A DNA stretch of 64,000 nucleotides from Subsaximicrobium wynnwilliamsii. GTDB lineage: Bacteria > Bacteroidota > Bacteroidia > Flavobacteriales > Flavobacteriaceae. How positions within the stretch are numbered: position 1 is the first letter of the stretch; every line of letters starts with the position of its first letter. The notes beneath the pieces are model-generated. The model did not search any database, was not told the origin of the DNA, and was given only the letters and a program-made list of their open reading frames with translations. The position numbers and the translations under genes were made by a program. Of this stretch, positions 4,152 to 19,895 are shown in pieces. Location of the stretch: positions 62,001 through 126,000 of the forward strand of contig NZ_VORM01000006.1 in the NCBI RefSeq assembly GCF_007997225.1, given 5' to 3'.

Positions 4152-4241
4152 TTATTTCTTTTTGTGACGATTAGCGCGTCTACGTTTCTTACGCTTATGC
4201 GTCGCTACCTTGTGTCTTTTTCTTTTTTTACCACTTGGCAT
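4152..4241 (-). CDS. 29-residue highly basic protein, candidate ribosome-associated
   Basis: The short frame from the ATG at 4241 encodes MPSGKKRKRHKVATHKRKKR followed by RRANRHKKK. Seventeen of 29 residues are Lys or Arg and three are His, with no acidic residue. Such composition is typical of tiny ribosomal proteins (bL36, bTHX, and bL38 described from the Flavobacterium johnsoniae ribosome) rather than chance coding. Its position between hup and rng on the same strand fits an RNA/DNA-binding role. I believe near-identical peptides are common in Flavobacteriia, but I cannot confirm which ribosomal family, if any, it belongs to. It is 36 bases downstream of the hup stop. Confidence 0.75.
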   Translation of the reverse strand: MPSGKKRKRHKVATHKRKKRRRANRHKKK

Positions 4242-4277
4242 AAATTATGTTTTTAAATTAATTTTTATTTTAAATTC

Positions 4278-4568: not shown

Positions 4569-4611
4569 TGTTATTAATTTTTAGGGTTAATCTATTAATT
4601 ATAAGGGACTG

Positions 4612-4619
4612 CAAATATA
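4612..4619 (-). promoter_or_regulatory. Bacteroidota -7 promoter element for hup
   Basis: On the minus strand the sequence reads TATATTTG, an exact TAnnTTTG match, about 44 bases upstream of the hup ATG. The leader would be about 37 bases. Confidence 0.6.
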
Positions 4620-4677
4620 GTATTTTTAATTTCAATATTTCTAGTGTAATTAATTAAAATTTAACCTTATAAAGATT

Positions 4678-4685
4678 TATTTTTG
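4678..4685 (+). promoter_or_regulatory. Bacteroidota -7 promoter element for mutY
   Basis: TATTTTTG matches TAnnTTTG and ends 19 bases before the mutY ATG, which predicts a leader of about 12-14 bases. It is divergent from and about 60 bases away from the hup element. Confidence 0.55.
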
Positions 4686-4704
4686 TGGCAGTTACAACAA
4701 TTTT

Positions 4705-5751
4705 ATGCATTTTAAGACAAGATTAACTAATTGGTACTCAATTCATAAACGCAGTTTACCCTGGCGACAAACTAAAAACCCCTATTACATATGGCTTTCT
4801 GAAATTATCATGCAACAAACCCAAGTGAAGCAAGGTTCACCCTATTATGAAGCTTTTGTTTCAAGGTTCCCTACGGTTTTTGACCTTGCCGATGCACATG
4901 AAGAAGAGGTGTTGAAACTGTGGCAAGGTTTGGGCTATTACTCTAGGGCTCGTAATTTACATGCTTCGGCAAAACACATTGCCTCCAATTTAAATGGGAT
5001 CTTTCCAAAAACCTATTCTGAGATCATTAAATTGAAAGGTGTTGGCGATTACACCGCAAGTGCCATTGCCTCTATATGTTTTGATGAACCCACTGCAGTT
5101 GTAGACGGCAATGTCTACCGTGTATTGTCTCGCTATTTTGGCATTGACACCCCTATTAATTCTACGGAAGGCGTCAAGGAATTCAAAAAACTAGCCACTA
5201 CATTGATTGACCATGAACACCCAGGTGATTACAACCAGGCGCTCATGGAGTTTGGCGCCACGCAATGTAAGCCCAAAAACCCTTATTGTTTGCATTGCCC
5301 TTTCAATGCGAGCTGCGAAGCCTTGCAAAAAGGAAGGATTGACCAATTACCAGTAAAACTTGGCAAAACAAAAGTGAGCAAAAAGCATTTCAACTTTTTA
5401 GTGCTCATTTCTCCAGATAGAACGACACTTTTTGAAAAACGAACCAAAAAAGGGATTTGGCGGAACCTCTATCAGTTTCCGCTCATAGAGACTAAAACAG
5501 AATTGGCCGCAGAAGATTTCAAACAGCACCCAAAAATTAAGGCCTATTTTGAAGACCTTCCGTTTGAGCACAGTCTATATAACACTAAAGAATTAATCCA
5601 TAAACTCTCCCATCAACATCTTCATACCCGGTTTTGGATCATTGAACTTGAAGCGTTGCCTGAGCAAGGCATGCCAATTTCCGAAGTAAAGAATTTACCC
5701 GCCCCAATTTTAATTGGCAATTTCATTGAGGCATTTGATTTCACATCTTAA
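4705..5751 (+). CDS. mutY: A/G-specific adenine glycosylase MutY
   Basis: MutY removes adenine mispaired with 8-oxoguanine in base excision repair. The 348-residue protein starts with the classic WRQTKNPYYIWLSEIIMQQT segment, which contains the catalytic Glu. The helix-hairpin-helix LKGVGDYTASAIASICF and the catalytic Asp in AVVDGNVYRV follow. The four-cysteine iron-sulfur loop is present (CKPKNPYCLHCPFNASC). The C-terminal third is the NUDIX-like 8-oxoG recognition domain. It begins the conserved flavobacterial run mutY-ssb-gldE-gldD. Confidence 0.96.
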   Translation: MHFKTRLTNWYSIHKRSLPWRQTKNPYYIWLSEIIMQQTQVKQGSPYYEAFVSRFPTVFDLADAHEEEVLKLWQGLGYYSRARNLHASAKHIASNLNGIFPKTYSEIIKLKGVGDYTASAIASICFDEPTAVVDGNVYRVLSRYFGIDTPINSTEGVKEFKKLATTLIDHEHPGDYNQALMEFGATQCKPKNPYCLHCPFNASCEALQKGRIDQLPVKLGKTKVSKKHFNFLVLISPDRTTLFEKRTKKGIWRNLYQFPLIETKTELAAEDFKQHPKIKAYFEDLPFEHSLYNTKELIHKLSHQHLHTRFWIIELEALPEQGMPISEVKNLPAPILIGNFIEAFDFTS

Positions 5752-5846
5752 AAACAACATTTTAATAACCCAATTTAGAGGCCTACTACAAACAATAGCA
5801 TTCCAAACAAATTCCTAAAATGGGTTCTCGGTGCTCTCAAAATGTT

Positions 5847-5854
5847 TAATTTTG
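5847..5854 (+). promoter_or_regulatory. -7 promoter element for ssb-gldE(-gldD)
   Basis: TAATTTTG matches TAnnTTTG and lies 20 bases before the ssb ATG. It is in the 123-base mutY-ssb spacer, so ssb probably has its own promoter. Confidence 0.5.
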
Positions 5855-5874
5855 TAACTTAAAATGAAGAGATT

Positions 5875-6339
5875 ATGTCTGGAACCTTAAATAAAGTGAT
5901 GCTCATTGGGCATTTGGGAGATGAAGTGAAAATGCACTACTTTGAAGGCGGCAATTGCATAGGCAGATTTCCGTTGGCCACCAATGAGACCTACACCAGT
6001 AAGCAAACCAATGAACGTGTCACGAATACGGAGTGGCACAATATTGTAGTGCGCAATAAGGCTGCTGAAATATGCGAAAAATACTTATCCAAAGGCGATA
6101 AGGTCTATATTGAAGGACGCATCAAAACCAAAAAATGGCAAGATGATAAAGGCATGGACCGTTACTCTACCGAAATACAGTGCACTGAATTCACGTTTTT
6201 GAGCACCAAAAATGAGGGACAAACTGGCACGACTCCGCCACAAGCCAACCAGCAAAGTAACGAGCAAACCCAACATCAAACCTCAAACCAAACAACTGAA
6301 AAGCCCAAGGAAGAGGATCATGATGACCTACCCTTTTAA
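5875..6339 (+). CDS. ssb: Single-stranded DNA-binding protein
   Basis: The N-terminal ~110 residues form the SSB OB-fold (LNKVMLIGHLGDEVKMHYF, TEWHNIVVRNKAAEICEKYL, GDKVYIEGRIKTKKWQDDKG). A Gln/Thr-rich disordered linker follows. The acidic tip EEDHDDLPF ends in the aromatic residue that recruits repair and replication partners. It binds and protects ssDNA. The same nine-residue tip is found on the DUF3127 protein at 25725-26096. gldE follows 16 bases downstream. Confidence 0.96.
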   Translation: MSGTLNKVMLIGHLGDEVKMHYFEGGNCIGRFPLATNETYTSKQTNERVTNTEWHNIVVRNKAAEICEKYLSKGDKVYIEGRIKTKKWQDDKGMDRYSTEIQCTEFTFLSTKNEGQTGTTPPQANQQSNEQTQHQTSNQTTEKPKEEDHDDLPF

Positions 6340-6355
6340 TTAACTAAATTAGTCT

Positions 6356-7672
6356 TTGATCTTGGACCCTGAACCCATAAGTTCGTTTTTATTACCACTT
6401 CTAAATATAGATTTGGCTCTAATTTTTGGACTCGTTTTACTTGTTGTGCTTTTGCTATGCTCTGCCCTGATTTCTGGCGCTGAAGTGGCTTTGTTTTCCT
6501 TGACCAAATCTGATTTGGACACAGGGCTATCAGAACAAAGCAAAGCCTTTGATATTATTGTTAGATTGTTGGAACGTCCCAAGAAACTTTTGGCCACGAT
6601 ATTGGTTGCCAATAATTTTATCAATATTGGCATCGTCATCCTCTTTGCCTATTTGAGCGAAACAATATTCCAATCTGTAACTATTGGTTGGGTGCGGTTT
6701 TTATTGGAAGTGGTTGTGATTACCTTCTTGATTTTATTGATTGGTGAGATTGTACCAAAAATTTATGCGAGCAGAAACCGCAATAAGTTTTCGATGTTTA
6801 TGGCCATACCTTTAAGGGTGTTAGATGTTGTATTCTCACCAGTGAGTTTGCCCATGCGCCAAATTACCATTGCCATTCACAATAAACTGGGCAAACAGAA
6901 ATCCAATTTGAGCATTGATCAATTGTCACAGGCCTTAGAACTAACCAATAATAGTGACACCTCAGTGGAGGAGCATAAAATCCTTCAGGGCATTGTATCT
7001 TTTGGCAATACAGACACCAAACAAGTGATGCGTCCCAGGGTAGACATATTCGCCATTAATGAAGATCAAAAATATGCCGACATACTTCCCGAGATCGTAA
7101 AGAACGGGTATTCCAGGATTCCTGCGTATAAAGATAATATTGACAATGTCACGGGCATCCTATATGTGAAAGACCTGTTGCCTTATGTAGATAGAAAACA
7201 ATTTGATTGGACCACACTTTTGCGCGAACCTTTTTTCGTGCCAGAGAACAAGAAACTTGACGATTTGATGGCCGAATTCCAAGACAAAAAAGTGCATCTT
7301 GCAGTTGTTGTAGATGAATATGGCGGCACCTCAGGGCTGATCTCTTTAGAAGATGTGATTGAGGAAATCGTTGGCGATATTAGTGATGAGTTTGACGATG
7401 AAGACATAAACTTTGTCAAAATTGATGCCAAGAACTATTCTTTTGATGGGAAAACAACCTTAAAACAATTCTATAAAATCATTGATCAAAACGTAGAGGA
7501 GGTTTTTGAAAATCACAAAGGTGAAGCGGAAACGATTGCAGGCTTTATTTTGGAAATTTCAGGAATTTTCCCAAAACGCCTGAGTAAGATCAATTTCAAG
7601 AATTTTGTGTTTACCATAGAAGCACTGGATAAAAAACGCATCAAACAGGTTAAGTTTACGATTTTGGATTGA
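6356..7672 (+). CDS. gldE: Gliding motility protein GldE (DUF21/CBS/CorC_HlyC)
   Basis: The 438-residue membrane protein has an N-terminal DUF21 (CNNM) region with hydrophobic segments at about residues 20-40, 85-105 and 120-140, then a CBS pair (RVDIFAINEDQKYADILPE; VHLAVVVDEYGGTSGLISLE) and a C-terminal CorC_HlyC domain. GldE of F. johnsoniae is needed with GldD for gliding and type IX secretion. An in-frame TAG just upstream (6350-6352) forces a TTG start, at 6356 or 6362; 6356 is 16 bases after the ssb stop, so translational coupling to ssb is likely. Paralogous HlyC/CorC transporters are the alternative, but the ssb-gldD context favours GldE. Confidence 0.92.
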   Translation: MILDPEPISSFLLPLLNIDLALIFGLVLLVVLLLCSALISGAEVALFSLTKSDLDTGLSEQSKAFDIIVRLLERPKKLLATILVANNFINIGIVILFAYLSETIFQSVTIGWVRFLLEVVVITFLILLIGEIVPKIYASRNRNKFSMFMAIPLRVLDVVFSPVSLPMRQITIAIHNKLGKQKSNLSIDQLSQALELTNNSDTSVEEHKILQGIVSFGNTDTKQVMRPRVDIFAINEDQKYADILPEIVKNGYSRIPAYKDNIDNVTGILYVKDLLPYVDRKQFDWTTLLREPFFVPENKKLDDLMAEFQDKKVHLAVVVDEYGGTSGLISLEDVIEEIVGDISDEFDDEDINFVKIDAKNYSFDGKTTLKQFYKIIDQNVEEVFENHKGEAETIAGFILEISGIFPKRLSKINFKNFVFTIEALDKKRIKQVKFTILD

Positions 7673-7832
7673 TGCCACTGACTTCAATATTCAAAAGTCG
7701 CCAACTTTCAATACAGGAACGATTTTTCAATTGACATGCGTTTTAAAAGCTTCAGTAGGAGACAATTCTCAAGAGTCGTATTATATTTTGTAGTTTGCGC
7801 ACTAATTTCAGCCTAAAAAAATCCTAAGAGCA

Positions 7833-8414
7833 ATGACCATTAAAAAGTTCATCATTCCCATATTGGCTTCTGTATGTATTTCCTGCGGAAGCGATCCCCT
7901 GCCTAAACCTAAAGCCATGTTGCGATTGGAATATCCACAACCCAAATACGTCAAGGTGGACGTGCCATTGCCATTTACTTTTGAAAAAAATGTTTTGGCA
8001 GATGATATTTCTAGCATCAAATTGGACGGGGTAAATAACCTCGTTGGTGTGGATGTTACCTACCCTAGTTTGAAGGGCACCGTTTATTTAACCTATAAAA
8101 AGGTAGAGGATGGCAATCTCACTAAACTCTTGACCGATGCACAAGAGCTTACCCAAAAGCATAGCATCAAAGCCGATGAAATTGAGGGCGTCTTATACGA
8201 GAATCCAAACAATAAGGTATTTGGGATGTTCTATGAAGTTGGCGGTAACGCTGCGTCACAGTCGCAATTTTATGTGACCGATAGTACCAATCATTTTTTA
8301 ACCGGTTCGCTCTATTTTTATGCGAAGCCCAATTATGATTCCATCCTGCCTGCTGCGGAATATTTAAAGAAAGACATCAAACACATTATGGAAACGATTG
8401 AATGGAAAGAGTAA
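7833..8414 (+). CDS. gldD: Gliding motility lipoprotein GldD
   Basis: The 193-residue protein starts with a lipoprotein signal (lipobox ISCG, Cys at residue 18) and continues with the GldD pattern PKPKAMLRLEYPQPKYVKVD, YPSLKGTVYLTYK and a C-terminal LKKDIKHIMETIEWKE. GldD is an essential gliding/T9SS component whose biochemical role is unknown. It follows gldE after 160 bases. Its last ~180 bases and its terminator have a decayed second copy at 12272-12513. Confidence 0.94.
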   Translation: MTIKKFIIPILASVCISCGSDPLPKPKAMLRLEYPQPKYVKVDVPLPFTFEKNVLADDISSIKLDGVNNLVGVDVTYPSLKGTVYLTYKKVEDGNLTKLLTDAQELTQKHSIKADEIEGVLYENPNNKVFGMFYEVGGNAASQSQFYVTDSTNHFLTGSLYFYAKPNYDSILPAAEYLKKDIKHIMETIEWKE

Positions 8415-8444
8415 AGGCTTGATATTTCCAAATTCCATATAAAA

Positions 8445-8476
8445 AAAAATGCCCTTCAGTTTTGAAGGGCATTTTT
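8445..8476. terminator. Terminator between gldD and the Oar-like TBDR
   Basis: The perfect 14-base stem AAAAATGCCCTTCA / TGAAGGGCATTTTT has a four-base loop and A/T runs on both sides, so it can end transcripts from both convergent genes. A mutated copy is at 12478-12513. Confidence 0.85.
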
Positions 8477-8494
8477 GGTAATTGAAGTTATGGT

Positions 8495-11400
8495 TTAGAA
8501 GCTATATCTCAAACCAACTTGCATTTGCCATCTTGAAGAAGACAAACCAGAATCATCAACGATGTTAACGGTATCGGCTGCTCTTGGATCATAAGAGAAT
8601 AATGGCGTTGTACCATCGGCTGCAAAACGTTCAAAATCCAACAACTGTACTTGATTGAAACCTGCGAATGTTCTCACACCCCACTCTTTATTCAATAAGT
8701 TTGTAAAGTTGAAGATATCTGCTGTTAACTCAAGTGAATGAATTTTTTCTCCAAATTTAACTCCAAATTCTTGAGCGAACTTTAAGTCAACAATATGTAT
8801 CCAATCAGAGCGATCGGCATTACGTTCAGCAAACTGACCTCTTCTACTGCTCAAATAGTCATCGCCTTCAATAAAAGCATTCAACAGAGCATATTGTTGA
8901 GAAGCCGTTAGATCATCGGTATCTACCAATTGCGCTTCACTTTCGTCTCTTGGCACATAAATCAAAGCGGAGTCAGAACCAGTGTCCGACAATAAATTAT
9001 TTCCATTGTAGACATAACTAAAAGGAGAACCTTCAGCCCCATCATAAAATAAACCAATGCGAGTCTTGATTGTTTCTGACCATTTGAATTCAAAACTCGA
9101 GTTGGCCAACACGCGGTGTCCTGGTGAAAAATCTGAGGTGGAAAGCACAGGTCTGTTTGAGCCATTGACGGTTTCCAAGTTTCTCCACTGTGAACTGTTT
9201 TGTGAGCTTGTAGCATCCAAAAGTACATCAGCATCACCATAAGTATAGGTAACAGCACTTCTTATATCCAATCGATCTGTAATATAATTATTTGACAAGG
9301 TCATATTTGCATTGTAAGAGCTGCCTGCCCCGGTATTGGATCCTAAGTAAATATCGCTATAGGTGTCATCAATCAATCTAAAACCATAGTTTGGTCGAGA
9401 CCCTGCTCCTGTAGTGTTGAACTGAGGGCCTTGTAAATTGATGTTTTCATAAACAACCGCATTGATATTATCATTCCAAATGAATTCTGCAGACAAGACG
9501 AATCCAGCGCCCAATTTTTGGTCAACTGCAATATTGGTCTTGAATACCTGAGGTAGCTTAAAATCTTTTGCAAATAAATCCACTTGCCCACCAATAGCAC
9601 CACTTCCTGGCTCAGGATCTGCAAATTGGGTGTTGGGATTTGGGTTGAAATCGGGGGTGTTGCCACCTGTCAATTGAATGAACCCTGCAGTTAAACCGTT
9701 ATTATTGTAAGCGCCACCTGGCCAAACCAAAGGCAATCTAGAGGTGAAGATACCAACACCACCGCGAACTTGGGTCATATTCCTGTTGTTCACATCCCAG
9801 TTAAATCCAACTCTAGGAGAGATATGTACGTTTGCGTTAATCCCCTGACCTACTCTGGCCTCTTGCAAATCTTTTCCGTTAGCTTCCAATAGTGGAATTG
9901 TTCTATTATTAAAATCGTCATTCACAAGACCATCTTCCCAATAAGGGATATCTACTCTCACACCTGCAGTTAACTTAAAGCTATCTGAAAAGCTAACTTC
10001 ATCTTGAACATAAAGACCTAATTGGAACAAATCAAATTCGGCAGCGCCTTGTGAATTATCACCAGTCCCACCCAATAAGGAATAACCGTAACGGTATCTA
10101 TTAGGTTTTGCACCGCCCAAGAAATCTTGAAGATTATTGAATCTATAATCTCCAAAATTTTGTCTAAAGAAGACGTTCTTTGCAGAGGAAAATTCATTAT
10201 TTGTACCAATGGTAATGGTATGCTTTCCTGAATAGATCTCAAAGTTATTGGTAAATGTCAACACACGTTGCTCCAATAAGTTTGCAGTTGAAAACGGCTC
10301 AGAACCAAAAAATATGGAGGTTCCAGCTGCATCTCTAATTTCTACCGAAGGGAAAGGACTACCATTTGGATCCCTGTTGTCATCTACTGAGGTATACCCG
10401 ATAACCAAGTTGTTTGCGAATTTGTTTCCAAAAGTAGAACTCAGCTCCAAAGCTGTGGAATTTGTAGTGGATTCAAAGTTAACGGCTCTATTTAAAAAAT
10501 TGATCCTTCCAGAGTTTGAACTTGGCGCATCCAACTGGATTGCTTTTACATAACTGTGCTTAAGCGATAATTTATGATTTTGGTTTATGTTCCAATCTAT
10601 TTTAGCAATAAGTTTATCACTTTCTAAAGAGGAGGTATTGTTGGCATAACCTCCAGCATTGTAACCATAATTACTCTGTAAAAAATCTGATAGATTATTT
10701 AAATCGGCCGCTGTGACATCACCACGGTAGTTTTCGATATCAAAAGGCTGTGGTGTTTCATTATCCTGTCTTTCATAATTGATAAAGAAAAACAATTTGT
10801 CCTCGATAATTGGACCGCCCAATCTTACACCATAAGTCAAGGCCGTAAAATCATCTAATTTTTCACGTTCACCATCCTCACCCGCTAAGTCAAACGGCGT
10901 CTTGCCAGCTAAGGATTGATCCCTGTAAAAAGAATACGCAGACCCCTCAAAGGTGTTGGTTCCTGATTTTGTGATGGCATTGATACTACCACCTGCAAAT
11001 CCAGATTGTCTCACATCAAAAGGTGCTACATTGATTTGAAATGATTCAATCGCATCCAATGAGATTGGGCTTACCCCTGTTTGGCCACCATTAGTACCAT
11101 TAGGAGCTAAACCAAAAACATCATTATTTACTGCACCGTCAATATAAATAGCATTGTATCTATTATTTTGACCTGCAATAGAAATGACATCATCACCTGT
11201 AACTTTTGCTTGTGGTGTCAATCTCACAAAATCTGCAATGCCACGGGAAAGCGTTGGTAAGCTTGTAACTTGTTGATTAGAGATAGTAGTCTCTGCACCC
11301 GTTTTACCGGAGTCAAAGAGACTGTTGGTTTGGGCGGTAATTACAACTTCGTCCAAAGCGCTGGCATCTTCGGTCAACTTTACCGAGATTTGCTGGGAGT

Positions 11401-11704
11401 CTCCCAGTTGCAGATAAATATCTTGTTTCAAGAATTCTTGGTAACCTACATAGGTAATGGTCAATTTGTAGGGGCCACCAACTCTCATGTTCGACATCCT
11501 GTAATAGCCGTCAAAATCTGCTGCTACACCATAAGTAGAACCAGATGGTGTGTGAACAGCCACCACGTTTGCACCTGGCAATGGCTCATTGTTAGCGTCG
11601 GTTATTTGACCGTTGATGGACGCGGTTGTCACACCTTGACCAAATGAAGCGGCTGAAATTAACAGCACAACAGCCAGACATAAAATTTGATTCATTTTTT
11701 TCAT
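8495..11704 (-). CDS. Oar-like TonB-dependent outer-membrane receptor
   Basis: This 1069-residue protein has a signal peptide (MNQILCLAVVLLISAASFG), a carboxypeptidase-regulatory-like beta-sandwich at about residues 28-112 (ASINGQITDANNEPLPGANV), a TonB plug with the TonB-box-like DEVVITA near residue 120, and a long 22-strand barrel ending in GLRYSF. The plug segment PFDVRQSGFAGGSINAITKS is characteristic of Oar-type receptors. The substrate is unknown; Oar family members are linked to peptide or protein uptake or secretion. No SusD partner is adjacent. It sits in one arm of a duplicated gldD-pgi interval, and its upstream region is homologous to that of the second TBDR at 14226-16772. Confidence 0.9.
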   Translation of the reverse strand: MKKMNQILCLAVVLLISAASFGQGVTTASINGQITDANNEPLPGANVVAVHTPSGSTYGVAADFDGYYRMSNMRVGGPYKLTITYVGYQEFLKQDIYLQLGDSQQISVKLTEDASALDEVVITAQTNSLFDSGKTGAETTISNQQVTSLPTLSRGIADFVRLTPQAKVTGDDVISIAGQNNRYNAIYIDGAVNNDVFGLAPNGTNGGQTGVSPISLDAIESFQINVAPFDVRQSGFAGGSINAITKSGTNTFEGSAYSFYRDQSLAGKTPFDLAGEDGEREKLDDFTALTYGVRLGGPIIEDKLFFFINYERQDNETPQPFDIENYRGDVTAADLNNLSDFLQSNYGYNAGGYANNTSSLESDKLIAKIDWNINQNHKLSLKHSYVKAIQLDAPSSNSGRINFLNRAVNFESTTNSTALELSSTFGNKFANNLVIGYTSVDDNRDPNGSPFPSVEIRDAAGTSIFFGSEPFSTANLLEQRVLTFTNNFEIYSGKHTITIGTNNEFSSAKNVFFRQNFGDYRFNNLQDFLGGAKPNRYRYGYSLLGGTGDNSQGAAEFDLFQLGLYVQDEVSFSDSFKLTAGVRVDIPYWEDGLVNDDFNNRTIPLLEANGKDLQEARVGQGINANVHISPRVGFNWDVNNRNMTQVRGGVGIFTSRLPLVWPGGAYNNNGLTAGFIQLTGGNTPDFNPNPNTQFADPEPGSGAIGGQVDLFAKDFKLPQVFKTNIAVDQKLGAGFVLSAEFIWNDNINAVVYENINLQGPQFNTTGAGSRPNYGFRLIDDTYSDIYLGSNTGAGSSYNANMTLSNNYITDRLDIRSAVTYTYGDADVLLDATSSQNSSQWRNLETVNGSNRPVLSTSDFSPGHRVLANSSFEFKWSETIKTRIGLFYDGAEGSPFSYVYNGNNLLSDTGSDSALIYVPRDESEAQLVDTDDLTASQQYALLNAFIEGDDYLSSRRGQFAERNADRSDWIHIVDLKFAQEFGVKFGEKIHSLELTADIFNFTNLLNKEWGVRTFAGFNQVQLLDFERFAADGTTPLFSYDPRAADTVNIVDDSGLSSSRWQMQVGLRYSF

Positions 11705-11727
11705 CAGTAAAAGAGTTTAATTTTTGG

Positions 11728-11735
11728 CAAAAATA
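11728..11735 (-). promoter_or_regulatory. -7 promoter element of the Oar-like TBDR
   Basis: The minus strand reads TATTTTTG, matching TAnnTTTG, 23 bases upstream of the ATG. The equivalent position upstream of the second TBDR holds TATGTTTG (16806-16813). Confidence 0.6.
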
Positions 11736-11755
11736 CGCAGGTTATCATTATAATA

Positions 11756-11795
11756 CATTAACAAAATGTTAAGAATCATTAACGTTTCAAATTAC
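11756..11795 (-). promoter_or_regulatory. Conserved TTAA-rich box upstream of TBDR promoter, copy 1
   Basis: About 40 bases with three TTAA cores (CATTAAC, TGTTAAGAAT, CATTAACGTTT). It is nearly identical to 16834-16873, at the same distance from the second TBDR. Conservation could reflect a regulator or UP-like element, or only the shared duplication history of the two upstream regions. Confidence 0.4.
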
Positions 11796-11869
11796 GTAAA
11801 ATATTGTCATAACCCAGTTCTAAATCACTGACTGCTAATGCGTTTATTAACAGGTATTAGCGTTGCACT

Positions 11870-12272
11870 CTGTAGCGCCCAATGCTGTTTTGTGAAAATG
11901 TATCTCAATTGTTGATAACATTTGCATTCACAAACTCTTTAATTATTCAATTTAATAACCATTTAACCAATTCAGCACCAAATTGGTCATCACTAAAAAT
12001 GTTTCAAATAATACTTTGGCCGAAATCTTTTGCTCATACCTAACAATCAGTGGCTCTAAGCTATATTTCGATTAAGAAGCTGCTGGTTGGCTTTTTGCCT
12101 TAAGAAAGCCTAGAAGGCCTAATGCTTTGATTTTTCTTCGGAAGATACTTTGTGAAACCGGCAAAATGCTCAGGAATTAATTTACCGCCTTGATGAAGGA
12201 ACTGAAAAAAGGATGTTGCGCATTGGCGCCCGATTCGCCCCAAATGTTCGTTCCGGTGTGATAGTTTATTTA
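11870..12272 (-). pseudogene. Decayed 3' fragment of pgi
   Basis: The segment aligns base by base to the 3' half of the intact pgi at about 16940-17483. Shared runs include TTGTTGATAACATTT, CTAAAAATGTT, GCTCATAC, CAGGAATTAATTT, TGTTGCGCATTGG and TCGCCCCAAATG. One internal deletion of about 115 bases (equivalent to about 17237-17352) and many small indels destroy the frame. It is on the same strand as pgi, lies in the same position relative to a TBDR upstream region, and ends abruptly in gldD-derived sequence at about 12272. It is non-functional and is evidence of a past segmental duplication. Confidence 0.85.
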
Positions 12273-12440
12273 TGAAGTAGATGACTACGCTGAGTCACAA
12301 TCGCAATTTTATTTGAGGTATAGCAGCGGTCTTTTATTTTACTGCTTCGCTATAGTTCTAAGTGAAGCCCAATTACGATTCCTGCCTGCTTCGGAATACT
12401 TGAAAAAGCCATCAAACTCATTATAGAAACGATTGAATGA
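12272..12440 (+). pseudogene. Decayed 3' fragment of gldD
   Basis: The segment matches the end of gldD at about 8232-8414: shared runs TATGAAGT, TCACAATCGCAATTTTAT (TCACAGTCGCAATTTTAT in gldD), GAAGCCCAATTA, CCTGCCTGCT and GAAACGATTGAATG. An insertion of about 40 bases that itself forms a hairpin lies near 12320-12355. It joins the pgi fragment without a spacer and is followed by a copy of the gldD terminator. The reading frame is broken, so no protein is expected. Confidence 0.85.
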
Positions 12441-12477
12441 AAGGAATGAATTTTTGGTCATTTTAAGATTTCAGAAT

Positions 12478-12513
12478 AAAAAAAATGCCCTTCAAATTGA
12501 AGAGCATTTTTTT
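12478..12513. terminator. Duplicated copy of the gldD terminator
   Basis: The stem ATGCCCTTCA / TGAAGAGCAT has one mismatch, with A and T runs outside. It is homologous to the terminator at 8445-8476 and now ends the minus-strand lipoprotein gene at 12533. It is the one part of the scar that is still likely to work. Confidence 0.7.
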
Positions 12514-12532
12514 ATAGATTGAATTCTAGTAA

Positions 12533-14215
12533 CTAGTCCACATTAGGAACCCATACACCACCGGTTTTGATGTATTTTAATTCCTCTGTTCCGCTACTGC
12601 CATCATAGATATCAAAAGTCAACACATATTTTTGACCTTCTTCAGCATTCGGCGCTAAGAAGTTAGTTAGCAAATCTGTAAATACAGTGTTCAACATTTC
12701 TACACTCCAAAAGGCCGCATTACTTGACCTTCTATCAAAATTACCAAAGTTGGCCATACTAGATACTGCTGCGCTAAAGCCATCAGCACTTGCATAGTTG
12801 GTAGCGATATAATCAATATCAGCTTGAGCAATTATGTATCTAATTGTATTATCTGGAACCCATTGCCCCTCGTCAAATCCAAATTTGAGTGAGGTCTCAA
12901 TTGTAGATTCATGAGCCATCCATTGACCGCTAGTAAAAGTGTATTCATTACCTCTTATCCCTGCACCACTATTACTCGAGAAGTACTTATAAATAACAAT
13001 GATTTTATTCTCTTCTTGGGCAAAAGGATATTTCAAATCTAAAAATGTTGGAAGGTAACTATCTGCCGGCGTGGAACTGCTAAAGTTGTTGAATGCGCCA
13101 GGTTGTCCAGAACTTTCTCCCATAGAATCGTAATCGGCGTTACTCAAATAGTACACATTCTCAGCATCATTCCAAGAGCCACCTTCGTACACAAAATATT
13201 CTCCTTTAGAATCGGTGTTGCCAGTTACACCTAAAGTTTTGATGTTGAAGTAATCGATTCTCCATAAAGGCGCAACTGTTGAAGTAGAGTTGTATCTAAA
13301 GGCCACATGGATCACGGTATCGTCATAAGCCGAAAAATCATAATCCTCAGAAAGTATAAATTCGGAAGTATTTCCAGACGGCACAGTAGTCAAAGTAATT
13401 ACATCCCATGTTGCAGCGATTGGGTCGCCACCTGTAGTATAATTGGTTGACACCAAAATATTCACAAAATCGGCAGCTTCGTTCCCATTCAAAAAACTGA
13501 TTCTTTGATTGATTTGAAACTTAAGATCAGTCTCTCCACTAAGATCAATTTCAGGAGAAACCAACCAATCTTCACCAGCGATTTCACTGCCATTGACAAA
13601 GGCCGATGCATTGGCGTGTGCAGCGCCTTCAGACCAACCGATACCGTCCATATCGACATCGACATTTTCGAATGTAGGGTAGATATCAGGAAAATTACCA
13701 CCACCAACAATAGCCAAACCTACATCTGGAGTTTCAGTATATTGCTTGTAAGTCACCAAAGCGATTTGACCTTCAACCGGTGCAGCAATTTGCGCATCCA
13801 ATACATCAGGAATCAATGCTGTGGGATCTACGTTTGGATAAAATCCAAAGGCATCACTACCAGTTAATGCGTAATCATCATTTGATAGGGGATAAGTTTC
13901 AGCACTTGTGTAAGCACTAACGCCTTCCGCAGCACCTACAAAAAGCTTGTAGTTTACCAAAACCGAAGATCCTTGTCCATATAAAGGATAGAGATCCGAA
14001 AGCAATTGAGGAATGGAATCTTTGGCTTGATCTTGAGAATTAAAACTTCCGAAGCCCAAATCGAATGCACTGTAATCTGCATCGGTTAACGTATATTCAA
14101 ACTCACCAATATTTGGCTGCTCTGGGAGGGCATCAACTTGGTCGTTAAGATCATCTAAAGGGTTACATCCTACAAAGGCTGCAGCCATGACTAATAAATA
14201 AATTACTTTTTTCAT
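12533..14215 (-). CDS. Surface lipoprotein with choice-of-anchor J-type domain
   Basis: The ATG at 14215 gives a 560-residue lipoprotein (MKKVIYLLVMAAAFVGC, Cys17) and sits 10 bases after the stop of the upstream TBDR; a longer TTG/CTG-type reading would overlap that gene and is rejected. After an N-terminal region repeated in style at the C-terminus (YTLTDADYSAF; YIIAQADIDYIA), a jelly-roll domain of the choice-of-anchor J type is seen at about residues 165-325 (EDWLVSPEIDLSG, HVAFRYNSTS, WRIDYFNIKTLG). It probably sits on the outer-membrane surface as the substrate-binding partner of the TBDR, replacing SusD. The substrate is unknown. Confidence 0.8.
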   Translation of the reverse strand: MKKVIYLLVMAAAFVGCNPLDDLNDQVDALPEQPNIGEFEYTLTDADYSAFDLGFGSFNSQDQAKDSIPQLLSDLYPLYGQGSSVLVNYKLFVGAAEGVSAYTSAETYPLSNDDYALTGSDAFGFYPNVDPTALIPDVLDAQIAAPVEGQIALVTYKQYTETPDVGLAIVGGGNFPDIYPTFENVDVDMDGIGWSEGAAHANASAFVNGSEIAGEDWLVSPEIDLSGETDLKFQINQRISFLNGNEAADFVNILVSTNYTTGGDPIAATWDVITLTTVPSGNTSEFILSEDYDFSAYDDTVIHVAFRYNSTSTVAPLWRIDYFNIKTLGVTGNTDSKGEYFVYEGGSWNDAENVYYLSNADYDSMGESSGQPGAFNNFSSSTPADSYLPTFLDLKYPFAQEENKIIVIYKYFSSNSGAGIRGNEYTFTSGQWMAHESTIETSLKFGFDEGQWVPDNTIRYIIAQADIDYIATNYASADGFSAAVSSMANFGNFDRRSSNAAFWSVEMLNTVFTDLLTNFLAPNAEEGQKYVLTFDIYDGSSGTEELKYIKTGGVWVPNVD

Positions 14216-14225
14216 TTTCTTTTTT

Positions 14226-16772
14226 TTAAAAATTAAGTTTTGCACCTAAACTAAACGTTCTTCCAAAACCGTAGAACACTCGAGTTGTGAATACATCAGA
14301 CTCGGCACCATCACGTGCATCGGCAATAAACTCAGTATCGAAAATATTATTGATACGGCCTGTAAGTTCGGCATCAAGAGAACCGAATTTGAAACCATGT
14401 CTAATCGCTGAATCAAAGAGTCCGAAATCTGGAAGTTTAAAAGCATCTGGTCTTTTTGTAGTTCGATTGCTGGGATCATAATCGGCATAGATATCACCAT
14501 TATAAAGGTAATCAATTGTAAACGTAGTTTTTGGAGTCAATTTATAAATGGTACCTAAGCCAAAAGTTGTTTGTGCAGCATTACCAACGTGCAGGTCTTC
14601 GATAAAAAGGTTAATTGGGTCACCGACTGCATTATTTTCTTCATCAAAAATTATAACATCCTCTACATTATTTTGCCATCTCCAATCGCCTATAGAAGCC
14701 ATTCCCGTTACAGAAAAAGTTGAAGATACACGATAATTAAAATCGAGTTCCACACCCATATGCAACGCATTAACACCTAAAATATTGGCGAAATTTCTTG
14801 TCCCATCTTGGGCTTGAAAACTGGCAAACTCTGTTCTGTCTTTCCAAGTGGTATGGTACAGGTTAATGTTTGCAGATAATTTCTCAGCTCTATGACCGTA
14901 TCCAACTTCAAAACTGGTAATCCTTTGGTTTGGAGCATCTCCATTAACATCAGTGTTGTTACGGTTAGCGAAAATAGAGTTAAAAAATGGGGCTCTTTCA
15001 AAGTATCCCAAATTAAAAAACACATTGTTTCTATCGTCAAGACGGTAGTTCGCACCACCTTTTGCGCCGTAAGCAAAGAAGTTGTACACATCTGACTCTT
15101 GTAGTGGATCACTATCCAAATATAAGAAACGATCTACTCTTTGATAAGATGTGTTGGAAGCAGAAACCGAGACAAAAGCATTGAAATTCTCTTGAATGTC
15201 ATATTCCGCTTGGACAAAACCGCCCAACCAGCCTACTTTACCATCATTGTCATAAAGGATTTTGTCACCTACTTGAGCTTGATTGTTTGGATTGTTAACA
15301 TCGGAAGCATCTGAAAAATATTGGCCACCCAATAAATCGGTCACCTCGGTAAAGTGAAAGCCTTCATAGCCTCTAAGATCTAAACCTGTTAATAGTACAA
15401 GATCATCTGTAAGGTCTGTTTTAAAGGTAGAAAGCACCCCGTACCATATGTGATCATTTCTAGAAGCTCTCAAAATACTTTCAGAACCTTCAACGCCTGC
15501 AGTTTCATTTTCTGAAACAATCTTGTCAAAATCAACTGTGCCTAGGTTACCGATTCTATATTCGTCATCATCAAAACGGAATTTGTTGACACCGCTAAAA
15601 CCGCCGCCACCTCCAGAACCAACAGACACATAAGCAGCTGTAGACAAACTTGAAGCCTGGCTGATGTTCCAATAGTGGTTTAAGGAAATTTGTGGTTTGT
15701 GGTAGAAGTTATCCTCCACACTGGTAAATTGACCGTCTTTATAACCCCAATCTGAATTGTACTTTCTACCGCTTTCGCTTTCTCTAAACGTTTCAACTAA
15801 ATATGGGTTTTGTCTTTGACCGTGCGTTTGTTTTGCACCAAAGGCTGTTAAGGCAATTTTATGTTTATCGTTGATTTCCTTCGAAACATTCAAAAAATAA
15901 GAAATGGCATTAAATGGTGTGCCATCTACATAGCCATCACCATCGGTTTTAGAACCAGAAACAGTTACTGCAAGGCCATTATCCATTAAACCCGTAGAGT
16001 AAGTGACGCCAAATTTCTTGAAGCCATCGTTGCCTAAGGTTGTGTAGAAGTTACCACCTTCTTCAACATCTGTAGTTTTGGAGATGATATTGATGGTACC
16101 ACCAATAGAAGGTACTGCTACCTTAGAGGCACCAAGGCCACGTTGTACTTGCATAGAACTAGTCACATCGCCTAGACCCGCCCAGTTGCTCCAATAGACA
16201 CGGCCATTTTCCATGTCGTTCACTGGCACACCGTTGATCATAACCGCAACGTTTTCAGAGTTAAACCCACGAAGTCTAATCTCTCCATCTCCAAAACCAC
16301 CACCTGTTTTGGTAACATAAACACCTGGAGTTGATTTAAGGATTTCTGGAAATTCTTGACTCCCTAATTTCAATTCAATTTCTGAAGCTCTAATGGTAGA
16401 TACCGCCACTGGGGTTTTTCTATCGACTGCTACAGAAGCAATGATTTGCACCTCTTGGAGACCTACCTCACTAGGATCCATCATGATTTTACCAAGATCC
16501 ATATCTCCAGAGAAAGCGATAGTCTTTGAAGTATAACCAACAAAAGAAAGCACTAACTCACCTGTTGCAGACTTTGTATTAATAATAAACTGACCGTCAA
16601 AATTGGTTGCCGAGCCATTAGAGGTTCCTTTTTCGATAACGTTAACGCCTGGAAGAGGCTGGTTCATGTCTGAACCTATTATCGTTCCCGACACCGTACT
16701 TTGCGCAAATGCAAAGGAACAGAACATTGTAAGAACCAATATGGTTAAGCACTGTGATACTTTTTTCATCAT
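14226..16772 (-). CDS. TonB-dependent receptor with carboxypeptidase-like N-domain
   Basis: The 848-residue receptor has a signal peptide (MMKKVSQ...FAFAQ), a carboxypeptidase-regulatory-like domain at about 25-105 (STVSGTIIGSDMNQPLPGVN), a plug at about 115-235 (STPGVYVTKTGGGFGDGEIR; VPVNDMENGRVYWSNWAG) and a barrel ending in LGAKLNF. The first two codons are both ATG; either could start. The plug resembles ferric-citrate/siderophore-type FecA-like receptors more than the Oar-like neighbour, so the two TBDRs are not recent copies of each other although their upstream regions are homologous. It forms a two-gene unit with the downstream lipoprotein. Confidence 0.9.
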   Translation of the reverse strand: MMKKVSQCLTILVLTMFCSFAFAQSTVSGTIIGSDMNQPLPGVNVIEKGTSNGSATNFDGQFIINTKSATGELVLSFVGYTSKTIAFSGDMDLGKIMMDPSEVGLQEVQIIASVAVDRKTPVAVSTIRASEIELKLGSQEFPEILKSTPGVYVTKTGGGFGDGEIRLRGFNSENVAVMINGVPVNDMENGRVYWSNWAGLGDVTSSMQVQRGLGASKVAVPSIGGTINIISKTTDVEEGGNFYTTLGNDGFKKFGVTYSTGLMDNGLAVTVSGSKTDGDGYVDGTPFNAISYFLNVSKEINDKHKIALTAFGAKQTHGQRQNPYLVETFRESESGRKYNSDWGYKDGQFTSVEDNFYHKPQISLNHYWNISQASSLSTAAYVSVGSGGGGGFSGVNKFRFDDDEYRIGNLGTVDFDKIVSENETAGVEGSESILRASRNDHIWYGVLSTFKTDLTDDLVLLTGLDLRGYEGFHFTEVTDLLGGQYFSDASDVNNPNNQAQVGDKILYDNDGKVGWLGGFVQAEYDIQENFNAFVSVSASNTSYQRVDRFLYLDSDPLQESDVYNFFAYGAKGGANYRLDDRNNVFFNLGYFERAPFFNSIFANRNNTDVNGDAPNQRITSFEVGYGHRAEKLSANINLYHTTWKDRTEFASFQAQDGTRNFANILGVNALHMGVELDFNYRVSSTFSVTGMASIGDWRWQNNVEDVIIFDEENNAVGDPINLFIEDLHVGNAAQTTFGLGTIYKLTPKTTFTIDYLYNGDIYADYDPSNRTTKRPDAFKLPDFGLFDSAIRHGFKFGSLDAELTGRINNIFDTEFIADARDGAESDVFTTRVFYGFGRTFSLGAKLNF

Positions 16773-16805
16773 TTTAAGAATTGTTTAAGTAGTTTTAATT
16801 TTTGA

Positions 16806-16813
16806 CAAACATA
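16806..16813 (-). promoter_or_regulatory. -7 promoter element of second TBDR
   Basis: The minus strand reads TATGTTTG, matching TAnnTTTG, 33 bases upstream of the first ATG. Confidence 0.55.
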
Positions 16814-16833
16814 CGGTCATCATTGTAATTACA

Positions 16834-16873
16834 CATTAACTAACTGTTAAGAATTATTAACGTTTCTAATTAC
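16834..16873 (-). promoter_or_regulatory. Conserved TTAA-rich box upstream of TBDR promoter, copy 2
   Basis: It is nearly identical to 11756-11795 (CATTAACTAACTGTTAAG versus CATTAACAAAATGTTAAG, then AATTATTAACGTTTC versus AATCATTAACGTTTC). It ends about 60 bases before the 3' end of pgi. Confidence 0.4.
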
Positions 16874-16934
16874 AAAAAAATTTGTTAAAACTTATTTACA
16901 AACAACTTAAGATGAGATAATTTCGAAGTGAACT

Positions 16935-18581
16935 CTAGCGATGGGTTTTATAACGATTGATCAGGTTTTGGGTAGAAATATCGTGATTGTTGATAACATT
17001 TTTATCTTCAATCTCTTTCAAAATGGTATTGGCCAACTCCTTGCCCAGTTCAACACCAAATTGATCGTAACTAAAAATGTTCCAGATAATGCCTTGAACA
17101 AAGATCTTATGCTCATACATGGCAATCAATTTCCCTAGGCTTTCTGGAGTCAATTTATCGATTAAGAAAGTGGTGGTTGGCTTATTGCCTTCAAAGACCT
17201 TATAAGGACTAAGTTCTTTGATTTTTTCTTCGGAAAGCCCTTGTGCTTTCAATTCCTCTATTACGGTATCCTTGGACTTGCCGTTCCATAAAGCTTCGGT
17301 TTGGGCGAAGAAGTTGGACATCAATTTATCATGATGATCTTGATTGCCGTAGAGCGACTTTGTGAAGCCAATAAATTCCGCAGGAATTAATTTGCTGCCT
17401 TGATGCATCAACTGAAAAAAGGCATGTTGCGCATTGGTGCCCGGTTCGCCCCAAATGATGGTGCCGGTTTGGTAGTTTATTTTATCGCCGTTTCTATCCA
17501 CACTTTTTCCGTTGCTCTCCATGATACCCTGTTGCAAATAGGTTGCAAATTGATTGAGATATTGGGAATAAGGAATGACCGCCTCACTTTCAGCCTTGAA
17601 AAAATTATTGTACCAAACGCTTAAAAGCGCCGTAATTACCGGAATATTTTTATCAAAGTCTTCCGTACGGAAATGTTGGTCCATTTTATGAGCTCCAGTC
17701 AATAGCTTATCAAAATTATCAAAGCCCGTTGCCAAACTAATGGTTAAACCCACAGCGCTCCAAAGCGAAAACCGACCGCCAACCCAATTCCACATCGGGA
17801 AAATATTTTTTTCATCAATCCCAAACGCCTTGACCTTTTCTATGTTGGTTGACACTGCCACAAAATGCTTTGATACCGCATGTTGAGGCGCCGATTTTAA
17901 AAACCATGCTCTAATGGTATTTGCATTTGATAGCGTTTCTTGGGTAGTAAAGGTTTTGGAGACAATAACGAATAAAGTAGTTTCAGGATTTAGGGTTTTG
18001 ATGACCTCATTCACGTGGTCTCCATCCACATTGCTCACAAAATGGGTTTTTAAATGATTTTTATAATAGCCCAAAGATTCAACAACCATGGCGGGCCCTA
18101 AATCTGACCCACCAATGCCAATATTCACTACATCGGTAAACGTTTTACTAGTATAGCCCTTTAGTTTCCCTCCTACAACGGCTTCAGTAAAGCCTTTGAT
18201 TTTGTTCTTGACCTCATAAATTTCTGGCATCACATTTTCGCCATCAACCATGACTTCTGCCGATTTGGGGTTTCGCAAAGCGGTATGTAAAACCTCGCGA
18301 CCTTCAGTCTGGTTGATGACCTCGCCACCAAAATACTGGGACATGGCGTCTTTAAGTTTCACTTCTTCCGCCAATTCCAATAGCAAGGCCATGGTTTCAG
18401 AAGTAAGGCGGTGTTTAGAATAATCAACATAGAAGTCTTCCCAAACAATACGCATATCATCTGCCCTATGAGGTGCTTCAGCAAAAAATTGCTTGGCGGG
18501 CTGGTTCTTTATGGTATCAAAGTGCGCTTGAAGTTTTTTCCAAGCTTTGGTGGTTGTTGGGTTTATTGCTGCTAATGCCAT
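16935..18581 (-). CDS. pgi: Glucose-6-phosphate isomerase
   Basis: This 548-residue enzyme interconverts glucose-6-phosphate and fructose-6-phosphate. Both family signatures are present: VGGRFSLWSAVGL near residue 267 and GSKLIPAEFIGFTKSLYG near residue 400, with the catalytic Glu in IMESNGKS and the His in TNAQHAFFQLMHQG. It starts 3 bases after the stop of the M23 peptidase gene, so it is the last gene of the minus-strand operon. A decayed copy of its 3' half lies at 11870-12272. Confidence 0.97.
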   Translation of the reverse strand: MALAAINPTTTKAWKKLQAHFDTIKNQPAKQFFAEAPHRADDMRIVWEDFYVDYSKHRLTSETMALLLELAEEVKLKDAMSQYFGGEVINQTEGREVLHTALRNPKSAEVMVDGENVMPEIYEVKNKIKGFTEAVVGGKLKGYTSKTFTDVVNIGIGGSDLGPAMVVESLGYYKNHLKTHFVSNVDGDHVNEVIKTLNPETTLFVIVSKTFTTQETLSNANTIRAWFLKSAPQHAVSKHFVAVSTNIEKVKAFGIDEKNIFPMWNWVGGRFSLWSAVGLTISLATGFDNFDKLLTGAHKMDQHFRTEDFDKNIPVITALLSVWYNNFFKAESEAVIPYSQYLNQFATYLQQGIMESNGKSVDRNGDKINYQTGTIIWGEPGTNAQHAFFQLMHQGSKLIPAEFIGFTKSLYGNQDHHDKLMSNFFAQTEALWNGKSKDTVIEELKAQGLSEEKIKELSPYKVFEGNKPTTTFLIDKLTPESLGKLIAMYEHKIFVQGIIWNIFSYDQFGVELGKELANTILKEIEDKNVINNHDISTQNLINRYKTHR

Positions 18582-18584
18582 GTA

Positions 18585-19895
18585 TTATTGGGTCTGTAAA
18601 TTTATATCGTTGCTTGACTGTGCTATTTGATCTTTCAATTCTTCATCCATGGGTATCACATCCAATCGTGTTTTAATTGGTGCTATATAATCAAGGTATT
18701 TCAGCTTTAAACTAGCAGAAATAGGCTCTGCTTCTGGTAATTTTTCCCTTAAAGGATCCACTTGTTTGTCGTTTTTCCAAAAACGGTAGCACACGTGCGG
18801 GCCTCCGCTATTTCCTGTCATACCAATCCAGCCAATCACATCACCTTGTTTTACGTATTGGCCTTTTTTGACGTTTTGTGCCTTCATGTGCAAATACTGG
18901 GTGCTGTAGGTCGCATTGTGCCTAATCTTTACATACTTGCCATTGCCCCCTCTTCTTGTAGATTCAGTCACGGTGCCGTTTGCAGTGGCCATAATGGGCG
19001 TGCCTAATGGTGCTGCGAAGTCGGTACCTTTGTGTGGCCTTAATTTATAACCGTAGTAAGCAATACGCCTATTGAGATTGTATCGGGATGAAATCCTGCT
19101 AAATTGCACGGGGGCCTTCAAAAATGCACGTCTTAGGTTTTTGGCGTCCTCATTAAAATAGTCTCTGATGCCCTTTATGGAATCGGTTTCAAACTCAAAG
19201 GCATAAAAGGGTTCACCGTTGTGTTCAAAATAAGCGGCCTTAATATTGTGCAAACCAACATAGGTTGTATCGTTGATATATTTATCGGTATAGATAACCT
19301 TGAAACGGTCTCCTTTTTGAAGCCTTCTAAAATCAATGGTCCAAGCATAGATTTCATCGGCCAATTTAAAGGCCAACCTTGGGCTCAGGCCTTTTTCCTG
19401 AAGTGTTTCGGAGATACTGCTTTCAATGACGCCAGTGGCGGTTTTTTCAATATAAGTAATGGGTTTTCTGCTGGTATAGGCATGAATCGAATCTTGAAAA
19501 TTCACAACTACATACTCCGAAAGGCTGGGTTGATAAATAAAGCAACGTGGCGTTTGCAAGGAATCCTTAGCACATAAAAGGGTGTAGGGTTTACCGGTTT
19601 GCAGTTTCCTGATGTCAAAACTGTCCTTAGCTTTTTCAGCAATTTGGTAAATTTTTGGATAGCTAATGTTATTGCGCTGCAAGATCTTTCCGAAGCTATC
19701 ACCCGCCTTAATGGTGTCCCGCTTTACGATATACTCGTCGAGCACGAAGCCAAACTCTGTGATTGGTTCTGGCTCAATAACCTCAGCTATAGGCTCTAAA
19801 TCCAATTTTTTAGTATCTTCTTTGCAGGACAAAAAACCCAAACAAATCAAAAGTGCGATAAGTGCCTTATTAAATTTCATAGTATTGTACTTCAT
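18585..19895 (-). CDS. M23-family peptidoglycan metallopeptidase, lipoprotein
   Basis: The protein has a lipobox (LGFLSC) and a LysM-like/OapA-like region (GDSFGKILQRNNISYPKIYQ), then a LytM/M23 domain in the last ~160 residues. Zinc-site residues are H288 and D292 (HKGTD), with H336 (YLHMK) and H367 (GGPHVC). The residue two after H367, normally the third zinc ligand His of the HxH motif, is Cys369. Many Bacteroidota M23 proteins may share this; a Cys ligand would still bind zinc. It should cut peptidoglycan cross-links. The ATG at 19895 overlaps the dioxygenase stop as ATGA; an internal ATG at 19880 is an alternative start giving a tidier signal peptide. Confidence 0.9.
   Translation of the reverse strand: MKYNTMKFNKALIALLICLGFLSCKEDTKKLDLEPIAEVIEPEPITEFGFVLDEYIVKRDTIKAGDSFGKILQRNNISYPKIYQIAEKAKDSFDIRKLQTGKPYTLLCAKDSLQTPRCFIYQPSLSEYVVVNFQDSIHAYTSRKPITYIEKTATGVIESSISETLQEKGLSPRLAFKLADEIYAWTIDFRRLQKGDRFKVIYTDKYINDTTYVGLHNIKAAYFEHNGEPFYAFEFETDSIKGIRDYFNEDAKNLRRAFLKAPVQFSRISSRYNLNRRIAYYGYKLRPHKGTDFAAPLGTPIMATANGTVTESTRRGGNGKYVKIRHNATYSTQYLHMKAQNVKKGQYVKQGDVIGWIGMTGNSGGPHVCYRFWKNDKQVDPLREKLPEAEPISASLKLKYLDYIAPIKTRLDVIPMDEELKDQIAQSSNDINLQTQ

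What the first reader, a model, noticed from the sequence alone, without database searches (positions are those of the whole stretch)
8231..17484. Interlocked pgi'/gldD' scar shows a duplicated or merged gldD-pgi interval holding two different TBDR modules
Between the two TBDR units lies a decayed 3' part of pgi (11870-12272) joined without spacer to a decayed 3' part of gldD with its terminator (12272-12513). Intact gldD and its terminator are at the left edge and intact pgi at the right. The order is gldD - terminator - TBDR1 - TBDR upstream box - pgi' | gldD' - terminator' - lipoprotein/TBDR2 - TBDR upstream box - pgi. This is the pattern of a tandem repeat of the whole gldD-to-pgi interval. 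TBDR1 (Oar-like) and the TBDR2/lipoprotein pair are not recent copies, so either both alleles of this locus were merged (for example by single-crossover integration of a circular segment from another strain) or a larger duplication lost different genes on each side.
Basis: partly seen in the sequence, partly recalled or inferred. Interest (0 to 1): 0.72.

Follow-up and report, generated by a model that had tools for sequence, protein, structure and literature searches.

The report
Two receptor alleles merged in tandem
This bacterium carries side by side two outer-membrane receptor modules that its relatives use as alternatives at one chromosomal site, and a decayed scar between them shows the site was duplicated, a natural example of a haploid genome keeping both versions of a variable gene.

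Summary
Between the two TonB-dependent receptor (TBDR) units, 11716-12271 matches the pgi leader and 3' part (16794-17482, 69-84%), joined directly to 12271-12511, which matches the gldD 3' end plus terminator (8232-8476, 77%). This is a tandem-duplication junction. Family-wide the two are near-exclusive: 2 of 299 genomes (this one, G195) hold both, 10-12 expected (kinship ignored). New: both fragments side with this genome's own pgi and gldD against every one of 56 and 27 compared sequences, and both show about 34% third-position divergence. So the interval was duplicated within this lineage, not captured with another genus's flanks. TBDR1 is foreign to the sampled genus (nearest G118, 78%) but abuts an own-type terminator. 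Best reading: a heteroallelic tandem duplication whose two alleles stay intact while the scar decays. Merging in one step and duplication followed by replacement are not told apart. Interesting, but a known kind of event.

The parts
7833..8414 (+). gldD, intact (left copy)
   Evidence: TIGR03512 247.6 bits; 71.5-79% identical to the 20 full-length gldD of congeners
8415..8476 (+). gldD terminator region, own-type stem, which also abuts the 3' end of TBDR1
   Evidence: repeated at 12450-12511; left arm GCCCTTCA present in both own copies (right arm decayed in the scar) and in 0 of 27 relatives within 300 bp after gldD or to the end of the locus held
8495..11704 (-). TBDR1, Oar-like receptor, intact ORF of 1069 aa, not found in the slot of the 22 congeners
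11716..11869 (-). leader/promoter region of TBDR1, repeat of the TBDR2 leader
   Evidence: 80% over 98 bp to 16794-16891, the only other match of the TBDR2 leader in the own genome
11870..12271 (-). pgi', decayed 3' part of pgi
   Evidence: 74% to own pgi, 67.4% or less to 56 others; 7 stops
12271..12271 (.). illegitimate junction pgi'|gldD'
12271..12511 (+). gldD', decayed 3' part of gldD with terminator
   Evidence: 79% to own gldD, 72% or less to 27 others
12533..14245 (-). lipoprotein gene (choice-of-anchor J domain), partner of TBDR2
   Evidence: NF038128, no Pfam match; follows TBDR2 in 13 of 22 congeners and in 20 of 20 fetched TBDR2 loci of other genera
14226..16772 (-). TBDR2, intact ORF of 848 aa
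   Evidence: PF13715, PF07715, PF00593; 80-82% to G008, G009, G019
16773..16934 (-). leader/promoter region of TBDR2 with TTAAC dyad and TAnnTTTG
16935..18581 (-). pgi, intact (right copy)
   Evidence: NF001211 799 bits

Best explanation
The site beside pgi (between pgi and gldD in this genus) is a slot that in this family holds one of several alternative outer-membrane receptor modules. In this genome's lineage the slot was duplicated in tandem by one illegitimate join inside pgi and gldD, and the two copies now hold different alleles: TBDR1 on the left, TBDR2 + lipoprotein on the right (shown). The most likely route is a one-step merge: DNA from a close relative carrying the other allele, running from mid-gldD to mid-pgi, integrated next to the resident allele. 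This could occur by end-joining into a circle and single crossover, or by homology at one end and illegitimate joining at the other (inferred). The redundant gldD/pgi middle decayed while both receptor modules were kept by selection (inferred from open ORFs beside a scar with 21-26% substitutions). The confidence given is for the heteroallelic tandem duplication; for the one-step route alone I would say about 0.5.
For: Repeat anatomy and microhomology-scale fusion. Single-allele loci of both types in relatives: gldD-TBDR1-pgi in G118 and G090; gldD-lipo-TBDR2-pgi in 13 of 22 congeners and in G051, G130, G283. TBDR1 and TBDR2 nearly exclusive: 54 and 64 of 299 genomes, 2 with both, 11.6 expected; without the 7 TBDR1 hits of 36-39%, 47 and 64, 2 with both, 10.1 expected; by genus 3 shared, 11.2 expected. 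The slot's occupant changes at least 9 times on a quick pgi tree (56 rows counted, this genome's state left out, no shuffled control shown). Fragments side with the own genes against all 56 pgi and all 27 gldD rows. Both fragments show the same third-position divergence, 34% and 35%, less than the 47-63% between own and the six relatives checked. The genome sits inside the genus next to G008, a TBDR2-only species. The terminator beyond TBDR1 is own-type. Search of the 22 congener loci with their own pgi and gldD gave no scar, only one 39-bp match in G009 at E 0.003.
Against: The merge step itself is not observed: no close strain with gldD-TBDR1-pgi and own-type flanks is held. Model-based trees of the short fragments are weak (support 90/80 and 86/86), and AU tests did not reject grouping with TBDR1-bearing genera (p 0.27-0.38), I think because pseudogene branches break the rate model. 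The TBDR1 leader does not side with the own TBDR2 leader over any of 17 congener leaders (all p>0.05; in 5 the congener had more matching sites), though it does over G118, G090 and G174 (p 0.048-0.005). First-position divergence of gldD' (8%) is no higher than that of functional relatives (7-10%). The exclusivity figures ignore kinship, use cut-offs I chose, and rest on 2-3 scored candidates per genome.
Confidence: 0.8

Rival explanations
1. Duplication first, replacement second: the single gldD-lipo-TBDR2-pgi interval was tandemly duplicated inside one genome, then the TBDR2 module of the left copy was replaced by TBDR1 through recombination with DNA from another genus.
For: pgi' and gldD' are own-lineage and the TBDR1 terminator is own-type, as expected if only the ORF region was exchanged. 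[quoted passage not shown]
Against: A homogeneous duplication is expected to be unstable and would have to survive until the exchange (inference). The exchange must break within about 11 bp of the TBDR1 start and about 18 bp of its stop, although the G118 leader and terminator are unlike the own ones.
Confidence: 0.33
2. Ancestral two-receptor locus: the interval held TBDR1 and TBDR2 together, was duplicated whole, and lost TBDR2/lipoprotein on the left and TBDR1 on the right.
For: G195 has M23-TBDR1-TBDR2-lipoprotein in a row, so both can coexist without a scar.
Against: 0 of 22 congeners carry TBDR1 in the slot. Two precise deletions ending at leader and terminator are needed. G008, G002, G009 and G019, near it in the rpoB tree, have TBDR2 only.
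Confidence: 0.07
3. Vertical retention: TBDR1 is the old allele of the genus, kept only here while TBDR2 spread through other species (compatible with later merging).
For: The TBDR1-pgi identity gap to G118 (77.5 against 72.2%) equals that of G118 against G090 (73.3 against 67.9%), so no excess similarity demands recent transfer. The other genera G118 and G090, next to this genus plus G051 in the rpoB tree, carry TBDR1.
Against: The genome is nested deep in the genus and 0 of 22 congeners have TBDR1 in the slot, so several separate losses would be needed (not counted).
Confidence: 0.12
4. Assembly chimera or contamination.
For: The genome is a draft of 132 contigs.
Against: The fragments are decayed at 16-31%, which read or contig errors do not give. 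The contig is 209 kb, contamination 0.16%, and G+C of TBDR1 (40.1%) matches the window (39.6%).
Confidence: 0.01

Closest known systems
Transformation-born merodiploids of Streptococcus pneumoniae (PMC3784515; abstract and passages seen)
   Same: Tandem duplication that lets a haploid keep two versions of a locus after DNA uptake
   Different: There about 100 to 900 kb, made by unequal crossing-over between repeats, in laboratory transformations; here units of 4-5 kb, a junction of 1-4 bp, old and decayed
Homology-facilitated illegitimate recombination, or linear DNA circularised by ligation and integrated by single crossover (PMC3240628; abstract seen)
   Same: Both predict one join without homology and one homologous crossover, giving the same order of parts
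   Different: The event here is inferred from sequence; which of the two happened cannot be told
Sequential displacement of T6SS effector modules in Vibrio cholerae (PMC5361080; passages seen)
   Same: Alternative modules exchanged at one conserved site, with leftovers of earlier states beside the new module
   Different: There orphan immunity genes are kept and the old effector is lost; here both receptor modules are intact and parts of the flanking genes are left as a scar

Membership tests
Tandem duplication (merodiploid locus) | Head-to-tail repeat of a segment with one novel junction joining its right end to its left end | tested here: met
Tandem duplication (merodiploid locus) | Both repeat copies descend from the same lineage | tested here: met
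   site counts against 56 pgi and 27 gldD rows; model trees agree but with weak support and inconclusive AU tests; the leader part is unresolved
Heteroallelic (merged-allele) duplication | Each module occurs alone at the same site in relatives | tested here: met
Heteroallelic (merged-allele) duplication | A kin strain with only the second allele and own-type flanks | not testable with these tools
   one genome per species is held; TBDR1 in the slot of 0 of 22 congeners
Homology-facilitated illegitimate recombination | Join with little or no homology at one end | tested here: met
   1 to about 4 bp
Homology-facilitated illegitimate recombination | Homologous crossover at the other end, traceable as a donor/recipient switch | not testable with these tools
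   the donor would be close kin; no diagnostic sites
Natural competence of the host | DprA present | tested here: met
   212 bits, cut-off 191; a widespread gene (10 of 14 control genomes), so weak evidence; no other competence gene was sought

The most novel reading that the evidence does not exclude
The site beside pgi is a family-wide exchange slot for mutually exclusive surface receptors behind a locus-specific leader, acting as a receptor allele locus spread by recombination in the conserved flanks. This genome records how a haploid escapes the one-receptor limit, by illegitimate merging of two alleles.
Probability: 0.45. Interest if true: 0.6.

Novelty: new member of a known kind. Interest (0 to 1): 0.45.

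Why it matters
Heteroallelic duplications are mostly known as unstable laboratory products (recalled). Here one is old enough for the redundant DNA to have decayed while both alleles stayed intact, which shows a concrete route by which allelic variation between strains becomes a permanent two-gene repertoire. It also points to a receptor slot beside pgi whose occupant switches repeatedly across the family; its ligand and the reason for the near-exclusivity can be tested.

Tried and rejected
Direct capture of another genus's gldD-TBDR1-pgi interval: rejected as a source of pgi' and gldD', since the site counts favour the own genes against G118 (70:21 and 32:6) and G090 (59:17 and 20:7).

Model-based placement: careful trees put each fragment beside its own gene, but the pseudogene branches are very long and the AU tests are inconclusive.

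Regulon idea: the TTAAC dyad plus TAnnTTTG looked like a regulator site, possibly a Pho box. A strict pattern finds only the two slot leaders and one further place in the own genome, with 1 control hit; the further place lies before a putative thioredoxin-like protein (my reading of the ORF, no family search). A stricter pattern finds only the TBDR1 leader. So by these patterns it is locus-specific rather than a wide regulon, and the Pho reading is unsupported. A F. johnsoniae phosphate-induced orphan TBDT with pf13620 (Fjoh_3841, table passage of PMC8115612) shares its only listed Pfam domain with TBDR1, but I could not test orthology.

Leader test: the TBDR1 leader does not side with the own leader over any of 17 congener leaders, so the leader is not used as evidence for own-lineage origin.

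Literature: searches for gldD with glucose-6-phosphate isomerase (1 paper), TBDR/Flavobacteriaceae/horizontal transfer/allelic (133 papers, 12 listed) and TBDR with gene conversion and related terms (0 papers) showed no description of this slot; only listings were seen. Competence in Flavobacteriia (4 papers, listing) added nothing. Searches were also read as listings. These searches cover open-licence PMC papers only.

Rows dropped: the fragment trees used 34 of 58 (pgi) and 29 of 29 (gldD) rows. Wide loci were fetched for 20 of 53 other genomes with TBDR1 and 20 of 62 other-genus genomes with TBDR2, mostly the best hits. Of 80 named contigs, 40 were examined. Leader and state counts used the loci in which a TBDR starts under 400 bp after pgi (51 loci plus the 2 own leaders; the 5 loci without a TBDR were added for the state count). 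rpoB was sought in 30 genomes; 28 matched and the 27 full genes were used.

Full report
Observation. Self-comparison of window 7000-19000 shows three long direct repeats: leader + pgi 3' part (11716-12143 and 12147-12271 against 16794-17235 and 17357-17482) and gldD 3' part + terminator (12271-12511 against 8232-8476). In the own genome, 11870-12513 matches only itself, gldD, pgi and an inverted terminator piece, and the TBDR2 leader matches only itself and the TBDR1 leader. The fragments carry indels, and pgi' carries stops. Pfam and NCBIfam confirm gldD, pgi, TBDR1 (PF25183, PF13620) and a different TBDR2 (PF13715, PF07715, PF00593) with a choice-of-anchor-J lipoprotein.

Junction. pgi and gldD are fused inside both genes with 1 to about 4 bp of shared sequence. 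This is the mark of an illegitimate join, and the right end of the unit is joined to the left end as in a tandem duplication.

Relatives in the genus. pgi and gldD were found in 23 of 23 genomes, and the interval was fetched from all 22 congeners; in G012 and G018 the contig ends inside gldD. Contents: TBDR2 + lipoprotein in 13 (in G013 the lipoprotein match is in two pieces), another TBDR (34-36% to TBDR2) in 4, no TBDR in 5, TBDR1 in 0. At E<=1e-100, four congeners have TBDR1-like proteins of 41-44%, on other contigs than pgi. Each congener's own pgi and gldD found no second copy in its locus, apart from one 39-bp match in G009 (E 0.003).

Relatives in the family. TBDR1-like proteins (E<=1e-150) occur in 54 of 299 genomes, 7 of them at only 36-39%, and TBDR2 (E<=1e-200) in 64 of 299. 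Only this genome and G195 have both; 11.6 were expected under independence (hypergeometric 1e-4), or 10.1 without the 7 distant ones (5e-4). By genus the overlap is 3 against 11.2 expected. Kinship is ignored in these figures. Of 20 TBDR1 loci fetched widely, 14 lie directly beside pgi, 5 beside the M23 peptidase gene that neighbours pgi, and 1 ends at a contig edge; gldD is on the other side in 2 (G118, G090). Of 20 TBDR2 loci, 20 lie beside pgi and carry the lipoprotein, with gldD beyond in 3. Of 40 named TBDR1 contigs examined (L130-L169, of 80 returned), 35 hold pgi upstream, two of these with another TBDR in between, and 0 hold gldD. So the two modules are alternative occupants of one slot. 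On a quick pgi tree the occupant changes at least 9 times (56 rows counted; 24 of 54 inner branches are open).

Whose flanks? At sites where the own pgi differs from another pgi, pgi' sides with the own gene against all 56 compared rows (weakest G009, 46:19). gldD' does so against all 27 (weakest G017, 26:10). Identity is 74% and 79% to the own genes, with the next best 67% and 72%. Divergence at third positions is 34% (pgi') and 35% (gldD'), against 47-63% between own and the six relatives checked. At first and second positions pgi' differs at 21-23% while those relatives differ at 4-20%; gldD' differs at 19% at second positions (relatives 2-10%) but only 8% at first (relatives 7-10%). The simplest reading is that both fragments arose together, after the split from the sampled congeners, and have decayed as pseudogenes. 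Model-based trees agree in placement but cannot reject alternatives, which I report against the reading.

Where TBDR1 comes from. rpoB (27 rows) and pgi trees place this genome inside the genus beside G008, a TBDR2-only species (support 95 and 83). TBDR1 is sister to that of G118 (SH-aLRT 92), at 77.5% identity with pgi at 72.2%. TBDR1 is therefore most simply an allele from outside the genus, though the divergence does not exclude old retention. Its downstream terminator is of the own type, whose stem arm is found in 0 of 27 relatives. Its leader is closest in blastn score to the own TBDR2 leader, but the site test does not separate own from any of 17 congener leaders, while it leans to own against G118, G090 and G174.

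How it most likely arose. A DNA piece from mid-gldD to mid-pgi, carrying the other allele from close kin, integrated beside the resident allele. Circularisation by ligation and single crossover, or homology-facilitated illegitimate recombination, would both give these parts in one event (mechanisms from the abstract of PMC3240628; their application here is my inference). The alternative, duplication first and replacement of one TBDR2 copy later, needs precise exchange points. Both receptor ORFs remain open beside a scar with 21-26% substitutions, so both are probably under selection (inference). The host has DprA, which is common and weak support for competence.

Novelty. Heteroallelic tandem duplications and merodiploids (PMC3784515, abstract and passages) and module displacement with leftovers (PMC5361080, passages) are known. 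This is a new, unusually legible natural case. The pgi-adjacent receptor slot was not found described in the searches made (listings only), which is limited evidence.

Noticed in passing
16773-16934 and 11705-11870; leaders of 53 loci: A TTAAC-dyad followed by TAnnTTTG is found by a loose expression in 44 of 53 slot leaders: 32 of 34 before TBDR2, 4 of 4 before the third TBDR type, but only 8 of 15 before TBDR1 (288 of 10600 shuffles). In the own genome a strict form occurs only in the two slot leaders and one other place.
   Followed up: partly
L080 (G195) 2607-11273: The only other genome of 299 with both modules has them directly in tandem (M23-TBDR1-TBDR2-lipoprotein, no pgi between, lipoprotein match in two pieces), possibly an independent merger; pgi and gldD of other genomes found no scar there.
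   Followed up: partly
L006-L027, L092, L096: TBDR2 of the genus is not one clade in a quick tree: copies from G051 and G106 (other genera) fall among congener copies, so TBDR2 itself seems to move between genera.
   Followed up: no
L016, L021, L022, L027: Four congeners hold a third TBDR type (34-36% to TBDR2, no lipoprotein match) in the slot.
   Followed up: no
L153, L163: Two Flavobacterium succinicans contigs have another TBDR (37-38% to TBDR2) between pgi and TBDR1.
   Followed up: no
whole genome G000: The genome (4.9 Mb) is larger than all 22 congeners held (3.1-4.2 Mb).
   Followed up: no
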